A stretch of 64,000 nt of DNA. Source: Thermoclostridium stercorarium subsp. stercorarium DSM 8532. Its GTDB lineage: Bacteria > Bacillota > Clostridia > DSM-8532. Positions 22,554-61,705 of the stretch are shown here, one piece after another; position 1 is the first letter of the stretch, and each line of letters begins with the position of its first letter. Both the position numbers and the translations under genes were made by a program. The stretch covers positions 1,277,465-1,341,464 of the forward strand of contig NC_020134.1 in the NCBI RefSeq assembly GCF_000331995.1, written 5' to 3'. The notes below the pieces were generated by a model. The model was given only the letters and a program-made list of their open reading frames with translations. It was not told where the DNA came from and ran no database searches.

Positions 22554-22591
22554 AACGCATACCTTTGCCGGCAGGGACAAAGGTACTTTTA

Positions 22592-22775
22592 CTACCGATA
22601 GCGCTCCATCAATTGAAAAATTGATGACAGTCCAGCAGTTATTCACTGAAGGACCAGGAAAACTCCATATGGGTGAAATTTTCCTTCGGCATTTTTTCCT
22701 TTCAGCCCATATCATCGGTACCCATATACCTCAATGGACCTACTGATAAAAAATGCACCTCTATCTTCCGATATT
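22592..22775 (-). promoter_or_regulatory. Lysine riboswitch (L box) aptamer
   Basis: Reading the minus strand, the conserved blocks of the L box appear in order: GAAGATAGAGGTGC (22768-22755), ATCAGTAG, GGCTGAAAGG, GCCGAAGG, then CTGGACTGTCATCAA...TTGATGGAGCGCTATC. The GATAG near the start closes with CTATC near the end as P1. The order and spacing parallel the Bacillus subtilis lysC leader. Its position in front of asd-dapA-dapB fits feedback by lysine. A second hairpin (22560-22586, TACCTTTG...CAAAGGTA) separates the aptamer from the terminator. Confidence 0.93.
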
Positions 22776-40924: not shown

Positions 40925-41296
40925 CTACCAGACAAAACGCAGGAATCAGTAATCAAAGCAATAGATGAATTAAAAAGGAAGTATAGAAGGAAATTTAGGG
41001 AGAAGTTTAAAACGATAACAGTAGATAACGGGACAGAGTTTTTGGACTATAGAGGGATAGAGAAATCAAAAACAGAGCCAGGCAAGGACAGGACGAAAGT
41101 GTATTATGCTCATCCTTATAGTTCTTGGGAAAGAGGAACGAACGAAAATATTAATAAACTGATAAGAAGATTTATACCAAAAGGAACAGATATATCAAAA
41201 GTAAGTAAAGCAAAAATAAAAAGTATAGAGAGATGGATTAATGAATATCCAAGAAGAATGTTTGGTTATAGGTCAGCCATAGAAATGGCGGTATGA
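40925..41296 (+). pseudogene. IS30 transposase, 3' fragment (copy 1)
   Basis: The frame restarts mid-gene with ESVIKAIDELKRKYRRKFRE and keeps the second Asp (ITVDNGTEFLDY) and the Glu region (SSWERGTNENINKLIRRFIP) of the IS30 DDE core, ending in GYRSAIEMAV. The first catalytic Asp and the N-terminal HTH are lost. It is not translatable on its own. Confidence 0.85.
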
Positions 41297-41378
41297 TGTA
41301 TAGAATTTATTCCAGTAATTATTCCAGTAAGCAATGGATTTACCAAATTTTTCACGGCATTTAATATTGCAATTTATA

Positions 41379-56128: not shown

Positions 56129-57523
56129 GTTATAGTCTCAAGTAGTGGTGTAAATTTCGTGGAGGCTAATTGACAAAAGTAACCACGATATGATTTCTAC
56201 TTTATTAGGGAAACAAAACAAAACAAATAAAGTAGAGGAGGTCATACCGTGGCTACTAATAATAGAATGGCACTTTTAGAACAACTTAGCAAGTATGTTG
56301 TTGAAAAAGATAAAGATTTTTTAAAAGAAGCATTAACATTACTCATTAATGCCCTAATGGATGCGGAAGTTACATCAATAATAGGTGCTGAAAAGTATGA
56401 AAGAAATAATAATAGAAACAACTATCGCAATGGATATCGTCTAAGAGAATGGGATACTCGAGTAGGAACATTACAGTTAAGCATTCCCAAGTTACGTCAC
56501 GGAAGTTATTTTCCAAGTCTTTTAGAACCGAGGAAAATGTCAGAGAAAGCATTATTGAATGTAGTTCAGGAAGCCTATGTTCATGGAGTAAGTACCAGGA
56601 AGGTGGATGAACTTGTAGAAGCTCTTGGAATGAAAGGGATTGATAAAAGCGAAGTATAAAGAATCAGTAAGCAACTGGATGAATTTGTAGAAGAATTTAA
56701 AAACCGTAGACTGGAAGGAGAATATCCTTACCTTTGGCTTGATGCCACTTTCCCCAAGGTTCGGGAAGGAGGCAGGGTATGCAGTATGGCACTAGTTATA
56801 GCAGTAGGAGTTAATCAACAAGGTGAACGGGAAATATTAGGTTTTGATGTAGGGATGAGTGAAGACGGGGCTTTTTGGGAGGAGTTTTTAAGAAGGCTGG
56901 TAGCAAGGGGTCTAAAAGGTGTAAGGCTTGTAATCAGTGATGCACATGAAGGGCTGAAGGCTGCAATAAAGAAGATTTTAACGGGAAGTGCATGGCAAAG
57001 ATGCCGTGTACATTTTATGAGAAATGTATTAAGCCAGGTACCAAAGCATTATCAGGGGATGGTATCATCGATAATACGGACAATATTTGCCCAGAATGAT
57101 CAGGAATCTGCGAGGGAACAGTTAAGGCATGTAGTAGATGAGCTTAAAAATCGTTTTCCAAAAGCAATGAAAATTCTTGAAGAAGCAGAAGAAGAAATCC
57201 TGGCATATATGGCTTTTCCTCGTGAGCATTGGGCACAGATACACTCTACCAATCCGCTGGAGAGACTTAACCGTGAAATTCGCCGTCGAACGGATGTTGT
57301 TTGCATATTTCCAAATCGTGAGGCGGTAATCCGATTGGTAGGAGCAATGCTCATGGAACAAAATGATGAATGGAAAGTAGGGCGGCGTTATTTCAGTTTG
57401 GAATCAATGTCAAAGATTACATCGATAAATGAATTTACATTGACGCCAGTAGCTTTATTACATAAATGAGGTGAAAAAATGATAAAGTAGAAATCATTTT
57501 ACACCACTTGACAAGACACTATC
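56129..57523 (+). mobile_element. IS256-family element B, left copy
   Basis: The ends GTTATAGTCTCAAGTAGTGG and ...CCACTTGACAAGACACTATC form imperfect inverted repeats sharing GTGGTGTAAA. The 1395 bp differ from the right copy (60089-61484) at only a few positions noted by eye: a one-base indel before the start codon, a few substitutions in the 5' third, and a nonsense change. It forms the left arm of the composite transposon. Confidence 0.88.
56249..57469 (+). pseudogene. IS256-family transposase B, left copy, nonsense-mutated
   Basis: It is the same length as the intact right copy (407 codons counting the stop) and starts with GTG after GAGGAGG. Codon 137 is TAA (56657-56659) where the right copy has TCA, cutting the protein before all three catalytic residues. 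The remaining part contains WLDATFPKVREGG, LVISDAHEGLKAA and NPLERLNREIRRRTD. It could be moved only by the right copy's transposase. Confidence 0.93.
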
Positions 57524-57600: not shown

Positions 57601-57630
57601 TTGACACATACATATATGTATGGTTAAAAT
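57601..57630 (+). promoter_or_regulatory. Methyltransferase promoter with palindromic operator in the spacer
   Basis: TTGACA (57601-57606) is followed by the perfect 16-bp palindrome CATACATATATGTATG (57607-57622) and a TTAAAA/TAAAAT -10 region (57624-57630). A repressor dimer here would block RNA polymerase. The rest of 57524-57810 is AT-rich and holds no gene. Confidence 0.65.
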
Positions 57631-57810
57631 GAGTGAGGTTTTTATATACGTTGTGATAATAAGCTCCATATTAAAACATCATAATCGTTTAATGATTTAA
57701 AATATATTAGAAAATTGGATTAATGTAATAAAAGCAGAGTCTGAATCTGTATTTGTGGTGTTTTAAAATTTTATTGAAAATCCTAAATGATACTCAAGAA
57801 AGGAATACAT

Positions 57811-58878
57811 ATGAAGACATATCAAAAAGTTTTTTATAAATCGTCTCAAGATATGACCGAAATTGATAATGAATCAGTAGCATTAGTTATTACATCACCA
57901 CCTTATCCAATGATCGAGATGTGGGATGATATTTTTTCCAAGCAAAATCCTAAAGTAGCTGAAGCATTTTACAAGAAAGATTATGATGCTGCTTTTATGC
58001 TAATTCATGAATTTCTAAACTATGTATGGAAAGAGATTTATAGAGTTTTAATTCCAGGTGGTATTGCTTGCATTAACATTGGAAATGCAACAAGGACTAT
58101 TAATAAAGTATTCCGGCTTTTTACTAATCATTCGCGGATAATATATAACTTTGAAAATATAGGTTTCATTTCTCTTCCAGATATTATCTGGAGAAAGCCT
58201 ACAAATGCACCAAATAAATTTATGGGTTCGGGGATGTACCCCCCTGGCGCCTATGTTACTTTTGAACATGAATACATTTTAATATTTCGAAAAGGTGATA
58301 AAAGAATATTTAAAAATAGCAAAGACATACAAAAAAGGCGTGAAAGTGCCTACTTTTGGGAAGAGCGTAATGTTTGGTTTTCTGATGTTTGGGAATTTAA
58401 GGGCACTAGTCAAAATATCACTGGTTTTACTTCAAGAGAACGAAGCGCTGCCTTCCCGTTTGAATTAGCATACAGGTTAGTAAATATGTATTCAATAAAA
58501 GGTGATACAGTACTAGATCCTTTTTTAGGAACAGGTACAACCTTAATAGCAGCACTTGCTTCTGAGCGAAATGGAATAGGTTATGAAATAGATGAGTCTT
58601 TCTCTGATTTAATTCATAAAAATATTATGAGTTCAGTTGCGGAATTAAATAATTACATTAATGATAGACTTATTAGGCACATAAATTTTATAAAGAATGA
58701 AGAGTCTAAGGGTAAAAAATTATATTTGTGCTCTCATCATGGATTTAGTGTGAAAACTAAACAAGAAACTGATATAGTGATAAATAGAATATCAAATATA
58801 TCATATACAGGCAATAACTGTTATTGTGTAGATTATGAACCAATTCAAAATATTAGTCAGCAATTGAAAATGTTCTGA
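57811..58878 (+). CDS. Type II DNA methyltransferase, beta class, probably N4-cytosine (MjaI/MthZI-like)
   Basis: The 355-residue enzyme has the catalytic motif IV SPPY at residues 29-32 (VALVITSPPYPMIEMW) before the AdoMet-binding motif I DPFLGTGTT at 236-244. That order defines beta-class amino-methyltransferases, and SPPY favours N4-cytosine. FTSRERSAAFPFELAYRLV precedes motif I. The partner endonuclease looks MjaI-like, so a CTAG target is a reasonable guess. The start at 57811 has AAAGGA. It faces the endonuclease genes across a shared terminator. The AT content is clearly higher than in neighbouring chromosomal genes, suggesting transfer. Confidence 0.88.
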   Translation: MKTYQKVFYKSSQDMTEIDNESVALVITSPPYPMIEMWDDIFSKQNPKVAEAFYKKDYDAAFMLIHEFLNYVWKEIYRVLIPGGIACINIGNATRTINKVFRLFTNHSRIIYNFENIGFISLPDIIWRKPTNAPNKFMGSGMYPPGAYVTFEHEYILIFRKGDKRIFKNSKDIQKRRESAYFWEERNVWFSDVWEFKGTSQNITGFTSRERSAAFPFELAYRLVNMYSIKGDTVLDPFLGTGTTLIAALASERNGIGYEIDESFSDLIHKNIMSSVAELNNYINDRLIRHINFIKNEESKGKKLYLCSHHGFSVKTKQETDIVINRISNISYTGNNCYCVDYEPIQNISQQLKMF

Positions 58879-58881
58879 ATA

Positions 58882-58907
58882 AAAGGCTCTAAAAGAGCCT
58901 TTTTATT
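58882..58907. terminator. Bidirectional terminator between methyltransferase and endonuclease genes
   Basis: AAAGGCTCT (58882-58890) pairs with AGAGCCTTT (58894-58902), loop AAA, with A and T runs on both sides. Confidence 0.85.
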
Positions 58908-58909
58908 TA

Positions 58910-59248
58910 TCATTCATGTTTACCTTTTGGCATAGACAACAGTCTATTGTATTCATCAATTATTTTTTGTTCTGTTATTGCATCAACTTTTCCTTCCTTT
59001 GGCACGATTATAAATACTTTTCCACCATATTTTTGCTGAAATAACTTATGCCCTTTCTCTTGAGAAGTTCGGCTTTTCCCTGTATATATAGCCATTGACG
59101 CAGATTTATATGAATTAGGTTTAATCTGAAGTCCAATTTTATAACCGTTAACTGATGCCCATAAGTCTACCCAGTATGGAGAACCTTCAATATCTGATGG
59201 GGTATCATAAAATGGGATTCCTCCAATTATTAAAGCAGCTTCATTCAT
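58910..59248 (-). CDS. Restriction endonuclease, catalytic C-terminal part (MjaI-like)
   Basis: The 112-residue product contains SPYWVDLWASVNGYKIGLQI followed by KP, resembling a PD-(D/E)xK core in which Asp in VDLW and Gln-Ile-Lys in LQIK would bind metal. Then come KGHKLFQQKYGGKVFIIVPK and a closing helix. This resembles the end of the MjaI restriction enzyme family as I remember it. Its ATG overlaps the stop of the upstream ORF by ATGA (59245-59248), so it is translated by coupling, or the two were once one gene separated by a frameshift. No separate ribosome site is clear. Confidence 0.72.
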   Translation of the reverse strand: MNEAALIIGGIPFYDTPSDIEGSPYWVDLWASVNGYKIGLQIKPNSYKSASMAIYTGKSRTSQEKGHKLFQQKYGGKVFIIVPKEGKVDAITEQKIIDEYNRLLSMPKGKHE

Positions 59249-59817
59249 TTTCCATGCTCCTTCATATATCCTTCGTATGTTCTTCTTAAAACAACATCAA
59301 ACATGTAATCAATACAATCTTGTTCACTTATGCTTTTTAAAAGGTTTGGATGAAATCTTTCTTCTTCGGGTAGAACCGTACTAATTTTTTCATAAAGAAT
59401 TTTACCTAATTTCTCAATATGTGATTCACTCTTTCCATGATTAAAATAATACTGTTTCCATTCTTCAAAATTATGCGGTGCACAAGAACGTATTAGCTCA
59501 GATGTAGGCCCAACATTCTTTTTAAAGTTTAGTTGCCATCTATTCATGGCATAGTTTAAAACAAATTCTTTTGTTGCTCTTGGCATATTCTTTTCCTCAC
59601 TTTCTATAAAGAATTTATATAATGGAATTCCTAATGCATTTGCCAAAGTTTCAGCACTATATAGTGTTAAATTGCTTAAACCACGTTCAACACGACTTAT
59701 AAATGTTCTGTCATAACCAGCTTTTAAAGCGAGTTGTTCTTGAGTTAAACCAAGGTTATTACGGAATTCTCGTAATAGCCTTCCAAAGCGAGCATTAGCA
59801 GATTCATTTTCTAACAT
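59245..59817 (-). CDS. XRE helix-turn-helix fused to MjaI-like restriction endonuclease N-terminal part
   Basis: From the ATG at 59817 (GAGGTG six bases upstream) the 190-residue product has an XRE domain at about residues 5-70 (FGRLLREFRNNLGLTQEQLA, AGYDRTFISRVERGLSN). Then comes an endonuclease-like helical region, MPRATKEFVLNYAMNRWQLN, KNVGPTSELIRSCAPHNFEE, ending CIDYMFDVVLRRTYEGY. The XRE part looks like a restriction controller (C) protein. An internal ATG at 59586 (residue 78) has GAGGAAAAGAAT before it, so the endonuclease part could also be made alone. The join of controller and enzyme in one frame is unusual. The catalytic core is in the next, overlapping gene. Confidence 0.75.
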   Translation of the reverse strand: MLENESANARFGRLLREFRNNLGLTQEQLALKAGYDRTFISRVERGLSNLTLYSAETLANALGIPLYKFFIESEEKNMPRATKEFVLNYAMNRWQLNFKKNVGPTSELIRSCAPHNFEEWKQYYFNHGKSESHIEKLGKILYEKISTVLPEEERFHPNLLKSISEQDCIDYMFDVVLRRTYEGYMKEHGK

Positions 59818-59836: not shown

Positions 59837-59873
59837 ATAATAAAGCAAAACTGAAATATTGTCTGTAGACAAT
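59837..59873 (-). promoter_or_regulatory. Promoter and palindromic operator of the controller-endonuclease genes
   Basis: On the minus strand the inverted repeat ATTGTCT-AC-AGACAAT (59873-59858) covers a -35-like CAGACA (59865-59860). A 17-base spacer leads to TATTAT (59842-59837), 20 bases before the start codon. This is a position suited to autoregulation by the XRE domain. The region 59881-60088 up to element B is AT-rich and without a gene. Confidence 0.62.
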
Positions 59874-60088
59874 AAATCACATTGTTAAAGTTAGATTATA
59901 CATATCAAAATTTGTTGAGTTTAGCAGGTTGGATGGCCTGTTTTTTTGAGAACACGTGTATTTGGAGTGGTAAATTTTCTAATACTTCTAAACTAATGTT
60001 AAAAAATATATTACATCCAAATAAAGGAACATAATTTGGGTAGTAAAGTATGGAATTAAATAAATATATTCTAGTTACTAAAGAAATG

Positions 60089-61484
60089 GTTATAGTCTTA
60101 AGTAGTGGTGTAAATTTCGTGGAAGCTAATTGACAAAAGTAACCACGATATGATTTCTACTTTATTAGGGAAACAAAACAAAAACAAATAAAGTAGAGGA
60201 GGTCATACCGTGGCTACTAATAATAGAATGGCACTTTTAGAACAACTTAGCAAGTATGTTGTTGAAAAAGATAAAGATTTTTTAAAAGAAGCATTAACAT
60301 TACTCATTAATGCCCTAATGGATGCGGAAGTTACATCAATAATAGGTGCTGAAAAGTATGAAAGAAATGATAGTAGAAACAACTATCGCAATGGATATCG
60401 CCTAAGAGAATGGGATACTCGAGTAGGAACATTACAGTTAAGCATTCCCAAGTTACGTCACGGAAGTTATTTTCCAAGTCTTTTAGAACCGAGGAAAATG
60501 TCAGAGAAAGCATTATTGAATGTAGTTCAGGAAGCCTATGTTCATGGAGTAAGTACCAGGAAGGTGGATGAACTTGTAGAAGCTCTTGGAATGAAAGGGA
60601 TTGATAAAAGCGAAGTATCAAGAATCAGTAAGCAACTGGATGAATTTGTAGAAGAATTTAAAAACCGTAGACTGGAAGGAGAATATCCTTACCTTTGGCT
60701 TGATGCCACTTTCCCCAAGGTTCGGGAAGGAGGCAGGGTATGCAGTATGGCACTAGTTATAGCAGTAGGAGTTAATCAACAAGGTGAACGGGAAATATTA
60801 GGTTTTGATGTAGGGATGAGTGAAGACGGGGCTTTTTGGGAGGAGTTTTTAAGAAGGCTGGTAGCAAGGGGTCTAAAAGGTGTAAGGCTTGTAATCAGTG
60901 ATGCACATGAAGGGCTGAAGGCTGCAATAAAGAAGATTTTAACGGGAAGTGCATGGCAAAGATGCCGTGTACATTTTATGAGAAATGTATTAAGCCAGGT
61001 ACCAAAGCATTATCAGGGGATGGTATCATCGATAATACGGACAATATTTGCCCAGAATGATCAGGAATCTGCGAGGGAACAGTTAAGGCATGTAGTAGAT
61101 GAGCTTAAAAATCGTTTTCCAAAAGCAATGAAAATTCTTGAAGAAGCAGAAGAAGAAATCCTGGCATATATGGCTTTTCCTCGTGAGCATTGGGCACAGA
61201 TACACTCTACCAATCCGCTGGAGAGACTTAACCGTGAAATTCGCCGTCGAACGGATGTTGTTTGCATATTTCCAAATCGTGAGGCGGTAATCCGATTGGT
61301 AGGAGCAATGCTCATGGAACAAAATGATGAATGGAAAGTAGGGCGGCGTTATTTCAGTTTGGAATCAATGTCAAAGATTACATCGATAAATGAATTTACA
61401 TTGACGCCAGTAGCTTTATTACATAAATGAGGTGAAAAAATGATAAAGTAGAAATCATTTTACACCACTTGACAAGACACTATC
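60089..61484 (+). mobile_element. IS256-family element B, right copy
   Basis: This 1396-bp intact copy has the ends GTTATAGTCTTAAGTAGTGG and ...CACTTGACAAGACACTATC. It is in the same orientation as the left copy, giving a direct-repeat composite transposon. Its right side abuts the IS30 3' fragment. Confidence 0.9.
60210..61430 (+). CDS. IS256-family transposase B, intact
   Basis: The 406-residue mutator-type transposase has Asp in YLWLDATFPKVREGG, Asp in RLVISDAHEGLKAA, CRVHFMRNVLSQVPKHYQG, and Glu in NPLERLNREIRRRTDVVCIF. The start is GTG after GAGGAGG. The N-terminus (LLINALMDAEVTSIIGAEKY) is typical of IS256. It should be able to move itself and, with the left ends, the restriction module. 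Confidence 0.96.
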   Translation: MATNNRMALLEQLSKYVVEKDKDFLKEALTLLINALMDAEVTSIIGAEKYERNDSRNNYRNGYRLREWDTRVGTLQLSIPKLRHGSYFPSLLEPRKMSEKALLNVVQEAYVHGVSTRKVDELVEALGMKGIDKSEVSRISKQLDEFVEEFKNRRLEGEYPYLWLDATFPKVREGGRVCSMALVIAVGVNQQGEREILGFDVGMSEDGAFWEEFLRRLVARGLKGVRLVISDAHEGLKAAIKKILTGSAWQRCRVHFMRNVLSQVPKHYQGMVSSIIRTIFAQNDQESAREQLRHVVDELKNRFPKAMKILEEAEEEILAYMAFPREHWAQIHSTNPLERLNREIRRRTDVVCIFPNREAVIRLVGAMLMEQNDEWKVGRRYFSLESMSKITSINEFTLTPVALLHK

Positions 61485-61635
61485 AAATATTAATAAACTG
61501 ATAAGAAGATTTATACCAAAAGGAACAGATATATCAAAAGTAAGTAAAGCAAAAATAAAAAGTATAGAGAGATGGATTAATGAATATCCAAGAAGAATGT
61601 TTGGTTATAGGTCAGCCATAGAAATGGCGGTATGA
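61485..61635 (+). pseudogene. IS30 transposase, 3' fragment (copy 2)
   Basis: The last ~50 codons of the IS30 transposase (NINKLIRRFIPKGTDISKVS to GYRSAIEMAV) are identical to copy 1 and resume right after element B. The catalytic Glu lies just upstream of the break. Confidence 0.85.
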
Positions 61636-61705
61636 TGTATAGAATTTATTCCAGTAAGCAATGGATTTACCAAATTTTTCACGGCATTTAATATTGCAAT
61701 TTATA

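What the first reader, a model, noticed from the sequence alone, without database searches (positions are those of the whole stretch)
58910..59817. Controller (XRE) domain joined in frame to an MjaI-like endonuclease that is itself split by an ATGA overlap
Normally the C protein and the restriction enzyme are separate genes. Here the XRE domain runs straight into the endonuclease-like region, with an internal ATG (59586) that has its own GAGGAA site. The presumed catalytic Asp...Gln-Ile-Lys core lies in a second ORF overlapping by four bases. Possible outcomes are a two-subunit enzyme, a frameshift-inactivated enzyme, or dual products from two starts. The family assignment is from remembered motif patterns.
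Basis: partly seen in the sequence, partly recalled or inferred. Interest (0 to 1): 0.7.

Follow-up and report, generated by a model that had tools for sequence, protein, structure and literature searches.

The report
Regulator-fused restriction enzyme in two pieces
A bacterial DNA-cutting defence gene is joined to its own regulator at one end and broken into two overlapping reading frames at the other, so it either makes an unusual two-part enzyme or has been switched off.

Summary
Window 59245-59817 (-) encodes an XRE domain joined in frame to the N-terminal half of an MjaI-family (PF09568) endonuclease. ORF 58910-59248 (-), overlapping by ATGA, encodes the catalytic half (Asp, then Gln-Ile-Lys). 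A convergent N6/N4 methyltransferase lies at 57814-58878 (+). Of 41 relatives of this endonuclease subtype, 33 are single ORFs and 8 are interrupted elsewhere; none is split here, and in none was an XRE fusion found. In a relative's model the break falls between two helices, about where PD-(D/E)XK domains of solved structures begin. The invariant Glu ends chain one; Asp, Gln and Lys are in chain two; all are kept. The second ATG has a strong ribosome site; simulated one-base indels in this window's genes gave that combination in 59 of 85736 cases. I put two coupled chains forming one enzyme slightly ahead (0.5) of frameshift inactivation (0.38). A same-genus MjaI gene broken by a shift that also yields ATGA, and the frequent decay of such genes, warn against certainty. 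Controller-endonuclease fusions are published, as are two-subunit enzymes; my searches listed no MjaI-type gene with both. Specificity (CTAG) is untested.

The parts
59245..59817 (-). ORF1, XRE domain fused to the N-terminal (helical) half of an MjaI-family endonuclease, 190 aa; starts ATG 59817
   Evidence: start has SD energy -7.1, reached by 2.8% of window ATGs
59617..59775 (-). XRE/C-protein-like helix-turn-helix domain (ORF1 residues 15-67)
   Evidence: HTH_3 1.9e-13, Control_protein 1.3e-12
59257..59565 (-). N-terminal half of RE_MjaI domain (ORF1 residues 85-187; profile 2-94 of 164)
   Evidence: 7e-24
59584..59598 (-). Internal ATG (59584-59586) with GAGGAA (59593-59598): probable original start of the endonuclease gene
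   Evidence: intact relatives start near the matching residue; inference
59257..59262 (-). AAGGAG ribosome site for ORF2; its GAG is also the codon of the invariant Glu (E110 counted from the ATG at 59586)
59245..59248 (-). ATGA: stop of ORF1 overlapping start of ORF2
58910..59248 (-). ORF2, C-terminal PD-(D/E)XK-type nuclease half, 112 aa; D28, Q41-I42-K43
   Evidence: PDLC03450 5.7e-4; alignments; model and structural matches to Hjc
57814..58878 (+). N6_N4 DNA methyltransferase, convergent with the endonuclease operon (an upstream in-frame ATG at 57787 lacks a ribosome site)
   Evidence: PF01555 1.2e-45; MTase_II PDLC03283 2.3e-141
58881..58903 (+). Intrinsic terminator-like hairpin between the convergent genes
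   Evidence: 2 such sites found in the region, 1.1 expected in shuffles
59852..59879 (.). 13-nt inverted repeat (85%, 2-nt spacer) upstream of ORF1: candidate operator
   Evidence: function inferred
57601..57630 (+). Promoter-like TTGACA-18-TAAAAT (11/12) of the methyltransferase, with a perfect 8-nt palindrome in the spacer (57607-57622)
   Evidence: promoter-like sites in the region are no more frequent than in shuffles (16 against 15.8)

Best explanation
This is a type II restriction-modification cassette whose restriction gene makes two translationally coupled chains. Chain one is a C-protein-like XRE regulator fused to the helical N-terminal half of an MjaI-family endonuclease; the internal start at 59586 may also give that half without the XRE domain. 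Chain two is the PD-(D/E)XK nuclease half, started by ribosomes at its own AAGGAG site as they end chain one at ATGA. The two chains associate into one enzyme whose active site takes its Glu from the end of chain one and its Asp, Gln and Lys from chain two, while the XRE part controls its own operon. Shown: the ORFs, the domains, the retained residues, the ribosome sites, the position of the break at a domain border of a relative's model. Inferred: translation of ORF2, association, cleavage, regulation, and the catalytic role of the residues.
For: The break maps between helix 78-101 (holding the invariant Glu) and helix 104-112 of the model of the intact relative L069 (pLDDT 90); in 33 of the 50 structural matches listed, many of them stand-alone PD-(D/E)XK enzymes such as Hjc, VRR-NUC and RecU, the alignment begins at model residue 95-103. 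ORF2's own model matches Hjc from residue 2-5 on (Z up to 5.9). Residues invariant in 33 relatives: E110 kept in ORF1; D141, Q154, I155, K156 kept in ORF2. ORF2 has a ribosome site that 1.9% of window ATGs reach; overlap plus a site of -7 or better followed 59 of 85736 simulated indels in 39 window genes and 5 of 39694 in 33 relatives, where ORF1 ended near this border in 1627. ORF2 stays open although far diverged: neutral substitution to about 35% identity left 0 of 2000 simulated copies open, and 1 of 2000 at each of two higher doses. Residues conserved in 15 close relatives: 30 of 36 kept in ORF1, 0 of 11 at the junction, 14 of 22 beyond it, as expected if new ends were shaped there.
Against: 33 of 41 relatives are one ORF and none has this split. 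In two alignments the residues on either side of the break line up with relatives without a gap, so a one-base frame change of a formerly single gene would look the same; two other alignments put a four-residue gap just before the break, so the junction is not firmly aligned. 8 of 41 relatives are interrupted, so these genes often decay. In the same genus (G024, L004) a canonical MjaI gene is broken by a frame change that also ends in ATGA. Five of 15 residues invariant in 33 relatives are lost in the rest of ORF2, near its C end, and the one at the junction too. The low C-half identity of ours (26-40% in the 50-60% band) overlaps the range of other pairs in the same band (minimum 27%). ORF2's model is only moderately confident (78) and has no first helix. 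Foldseek itself gave no match to the L069 model at E <= 0.001 (best 2.1e-3). The finding was picked because of its overlap, so the chance figures are optimistic. There are no expression or activity data.
Confidence: 0.5

Rival explanations
1. Frameshift-inactivated endonuclease. A single-ORF XRE-MjaI fusion suffered a one-base frame change; the XRE part may still regulate and the methyltransferase survives as an orphan.
For: 33 of 41 relatives uninterrupted, 8 of 41 broken by stops, shifts, deletion or truncation; alignment without a gap at the break; same-genus look-alike L004; the neighbourhood holds a nonsense-broken IS copy.
Against: Ribosome site plus overlap plus domain border is improbable for a random indel; strong divergence in the junction and C half, with catalytic residues kept, is not what a fresh frameshift in an ordinary gene would show.
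Confidence: 0.38
2. Recoding: a fraction of ribosomes slips back one base on the short A run before the stop and makes the full-length XRE-MjaI protein.
For: ORF1 ends in an A run followed by UGA, and the joined frames align with no lost residue at the break.
Against: No stable structure around the site (z = +1.45, 189 of 200 shuffles fold at least as well); the purine-rich site is nearer to the A run than in usual -1 stimulators (spacing recalled, no call) and is well placed for an ordinary start.
Confidence: 0.07
3. The endonuclease half no longer matters; the locus is kept as an XRE repressor with a protein-binding tail next to a methyltransferase.
For: XRE domain and the N half are the better conserved parts.
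Against: ORF2 retains D, Q-I-K and the GGKVF stretch after long divergence.
Confidence: 0.05

Closest known systems
C-REase fusions of the PvuII group (CR.NsoJ138I; PMC3850674: abstract and Discussion read, plus one term search)
   Same: C-type regulator fused to the N-terminus of a type IIP endonuclease; there shown active as both
   Different: PvuII-type enzyme in one uninterrupted chain; here MjaI-type and split before the nuclease core
MjaI-family endonucleases, Pfam PF09568
   Same: ORF1 matches profile positions 2-94 of 164; intact relatives L069, L023, L009 match nearly the whole profile
   Different: C half too diverged for the Pfam model; split; XRE-fused; specificity unknown
BtsI and other two-subunit type II enzymes (PMC2909958 abstract; PMC4081073 passages)
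   Same: One catalytic domain shared between two chains (stated for BtsI)
   Different: BtsI is type IIS with two catalytic domains; no relation by sequence was tested
C-R gene pairs of other MjaI-type systems (L007, L027, L045, L059, L061, L065, L087)
   Same: XRE gene directly upstream of a canonical MjaI-type R gene
   Different: XRE and R are separate, adjoining or overlapping genes there
Frameshifted canonical MjaI gene of a same-genus genome (L004/L076)
   Same: Two ORFs joined by ATGA
   Different: Out-of-frame tail on ORF1, no purine-rich site before the second ATG (by reading), well conserved flanks: a plain broken gene

Membership tests
MjaI-type restriction endonuclease (PF09568) | Profile match over the curated cut-off | tested here: met
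   ORF1 84.9 bits against 22.7, but only profile 2-94 of 164
MjaI-type restriction endonuclease (PF09568) | C-terminal catalytic part of the profile | tested here: inconclusive
   ORF2 has no Pfam hit to it; it aligns with intact members and keeps D, Q-I-K; PDLC03450 5.7e-4
MjaI-type restriction endonuclease (PF09568) | Cleaves CTAG | not testable with these tools
   No activity data
C protein (controller) of R-M systems | XRE/HTH_3 protein encoded upstream of R | tested here: met
   HTH_3 and Control_protein hits; fused to R instead of separate
C protein (controller) of R-M systems | Binds C-box operators and activates/represses its operon | not testable with these tools
   Only a 13-nt inverted repeat upstream
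C-REase fusion | C and REase sequence in one reading frame | tested here: met
C-REase fusion | Complete REase in that frame | tested here: not met
   Nuclease half is in a second ORF
PD-(D/E)XK nuclease | Fold and catalytic residues | tested here: inconclusive
   Motif kept; L069 and ORF2 models resemble Hjc, VRR-NUC, RecU with Z about 3.5 to 7, below 8; no Foldseek match at E <= 0.001
Type II R-M system | Methyltransferase gene beside the endonuclease | tested here: met
   M gene 57814-58878; 33 of 92 loci fetched by similar M genes hold an ORF matching a canonical MjaI profile at E <= 1e-5

The most novel reading that the evidence does not exclude
A restriction enzyme that is both fused to its own controller and split at the border of its nuclease domain, with the active site built across two chains (Glu from the controller chain, Asp-Gln-Lys from the other), so that regulator, DNA-binding half and cutting half are titrated against each other by coupled translation and up to three start sites.
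Probability: 0.4. Interest if true: 0.62.

Novelty: new variant of a known kind. Interest (0 to 1): 0.42.

Why it matters
If the two chains work together, this is a natural split nuclease cut at a domain border, with a regulator tied to one half: a simple way to delay cutting until both chains accumulate after the cassette enters a new cell. If it is dead, it is a clear case of how restriction genes decay while their methyltransferase stays, and a caution that ATGA overlaps arise by chance from frameshifts.

Tried and rejected
Tried without yield: searches for relatives of either half in viral contigs (none confirmed), in phages and plasmids with ORF1 (2 and 209 records; the 2 and the 40 listed match only within residues 1-92, that is the XRE side), and with the halves apart (none); a search for relatives of ORF2 in 398 genomes of the phylum, which gave only the own genome, G481 and G717. 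Hidden homology in another frame at the junction was looked for by eye in all three frames and not seen. A composite transposon made by the flanking IS copies was considered and not supported: no matching target duplication was seen on reading the flanks. Programmed frameshifting was tested by folding and not supported. An assembly error cannot be excluded, but the run is short and the genome is one contig. Literature: the rows listed (2 of 2; 20 of 43; 20 of 92; 10 of 41433) show no title or abstract on a split or controller-fused MjaI-type enzyme; the two papers were seen as listing only. One search used a species name guessed from recall and told nothing about this genome.

Dropped rows: L123, L125 and L126 are cut by contig ends and L146, L147 belong to other groups, so they are not among the 41. 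Duplicate loci L105-L110 were not counted twice. An XRE-like ORF in L132 (E=0.0015, over 1.3 kb from its R gene) and the XRE gene of L065 (beside its other, canonical R gene) are not next to the R genes counted.

Full report
Check of the observation. ORF1 (59245-59817, minus, 190 aa) carries an XRE domain (HTH_3, 1.9e-13, residues 15-67) and, in the same frame, the first 94 of 164 positions of RE_MjaI (7e-24, residues 85-187). PADLOC models call the first part a control protein and the second a type II endonuclease. ORF2 (58910-59248, minus, 112 aa) starts inside ATGA, four bases shared with the stop of ORF1. One PADLOC endonuclease model continues from ORF1 (positions 3-89) to ORF2 (103-181 of 197). 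The internal ATG at 59586 has a good ribosome site, and so has the ATG of ORF2: AAGGAG, 8 nt upstream, an energy that 1.9% of the 2358 window ATGs reach.

The cassette. A DNA methyltransferase (N6_N4_Mtase, 1.2e-45; MTase_II 2.3e-141) is convergent with the endonuclease operon, with a terminator-like hairpin between. Two copies of an IS with a Mutator-type transposase, 1389 of 1396 positions alike, flank the cassette; the genome holds five full-length copies.

Relatives of the endonuclease. The closest full-length proteins are not the canonical MjaI type but a second group (L069, L023, L047, L009), 211-228 aa; three of these were scanned and match RE_MjaI over nearly its whole length. An alignment of this group with ours found matches in 38 of 393 genomes of the order of L069, two of them of other groups. 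Of 41 loci of this group that are not cut by contig ends, 33 are single ORFs and 8 are interrupted: L065, L119 and L128 by in-frame stops, L145 by a shift, L034 by a deletion with shift, L010 by several changes, L149 and L124 truncated. None is split where ours is, and in none did our XRE domain find an XRE domain or gene next to that R gene within the DNA held. Seven canonical loci (L007, L027, L045, L059, L061, L065, L087) have a separate XRE gene directly upstream of R; loss of the boundary between such genes would give our fusion (inference).

Anatomy of the break. In the alignments our residues on either side of the break line up with intact relatives without a gap at the break: GYMKE-HGK | MNEAAL against GYMTE-IQT | IYGQLQ; small gaps follow further on, and the alignments place a four-residue gap just before the break. 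With 33 single-ORF relatives the ancestor was most likely one ORF, and the frames part within a few codons after the invariant Glu. In the model of L069 (pLDDT 90) this point lies between helix 78-101, which holds that Glu, and helix 104-112. The best structural matches are PD-(D/E)XK nucleases; in 33 of the 50 rows the alignment starts at model residue 95-103 (Hjc, VRR-NUC, RecU, DdmD among them; Z 5-7, under 8, so only a fold resemblance), while Foldseek alone gave none at E <= 0.001. ORF2 is thus about the nuclease domain alone. Its own model is moderate (pLDDT 78), lacks the first helix, and resembles Hjc (Z up to 5.9). The codon of the Glu is part of the ribosome site of ORF2 (read).

Uneven divergence. 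Against 12 relatives of the order of L069 the N half of ours is 58-60% identical, the junction 4-15%, the C part 30-40%. Among other pairs with 50-60% in the N half (77 pairs) the means are 60% and 49% (C minimum 27%); for our 13 pairs in that band 10% and 32%. The terminal branch of ours is 0.53 in the N-half tree and 1.77 in the C-half tree; the longest other is 0.48 and 0.43. Of residues invariant in 15 close relatives ours keeps 30 of 36, 0 of 11 and 14 of 22 in these parts; of those invariant in 33, 18 of 19, 0 of 1 and 10 of 15. The catalytic-type set is complete. Neutral substitution this far would have closed the frame (0 of 2000 simulated copies open at 35% identity, 1 of 2000 at each of two higher doses; started from ORF2 itself, no indels). 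So ORF2 diverged mostly under selection. Whether the split came before or after that divergence, or whether the C half came in by recombination, is not settled.

Chance. One-base indels simulated in 39 window genes gave a stop overlapping an ATG of the old frame in 6448 of 85736 cases, and with a ribosome site of -7 or better in 59. In the 33 relatives: 1639 and 5 of 39694; ORF1 ended within model residues 99-107 in 1627, none of those with an overlap. The overlap alone is therefore weak evidence. L004, a same-genus canonical MjaI gene, shows it: a frame change gives an out-of-frame tail and an ATGA, without a purine-rich site before it. The combination here is much rarer, but the finding was selected for its overlap.

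Judgement. A functional split is rare (recalled) and decay of R genes common, which pulls one way; ribosome site, domain border, retained active site and reshaped junction pull the other. I put two coupled chains at 0.5, inactivation at 0.38, recoding at 0.07, regulator-only at 0.05.

Known work. A C-REase fusion active in both roles is described for a PvuII-like system (PMC3850674, abstract and Discussion read). Translation of the overlapping R gene appears independent of C in PvuII (PMC2997769, abstract). BtsI shares a catalytic domain between two subunits (PMC2909958, abstract), and type IIT enzymes such as BbvCI are heterodimers (PMC4081073, passages). The rows listed show nothing on an MjaI-type fusion or split.

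Noticed in passing
window 56129-57523 and 60089-61484: Two direct copies of a Mutator-type IS flank the cassette; the left copy has a nonsense codon at 56657-56659, seven differences in all, the right is intact; five full-length copies in the genome.
   Followed up: partly
window 61485-61705 and 41146-41378: Right flank of the right IS repeats part of a sequence at 41146 that reads like a transposase end (IS30 type by recall): one IS inserted into another.
   Followed up: partly
L004 1364-1953 (genome G024, same genus): Canonical MjaI gene broken by a frame change, with an ATGA overlap by chance and a methyltransferase on the same contig (L076).
   Followed up: yes
L059 6519-7747, L147 682-2071, L096 5986-7380, L026 5066-6414: Two different MjaI-type R genes in tandem, in L059 and L147 behind an XRE gene (in L026 one of them is interrupted): possible heteromeric MjaI-type enzymes.
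   Followed up: no
L069 4001-6400: MjaI-type R gene between two methyltransferase genes of different type.
   Followed up: no
window 57607-57622: Perfect palindrome CATACATATATGTATG between the -35 and -10 like boxes of the methyltransferase promoter: candidate regulator site.
   Followed up: no
window 22591-22771 (-): Lysine riboswitch (RF00168, 139 bits).
   Followed up: no
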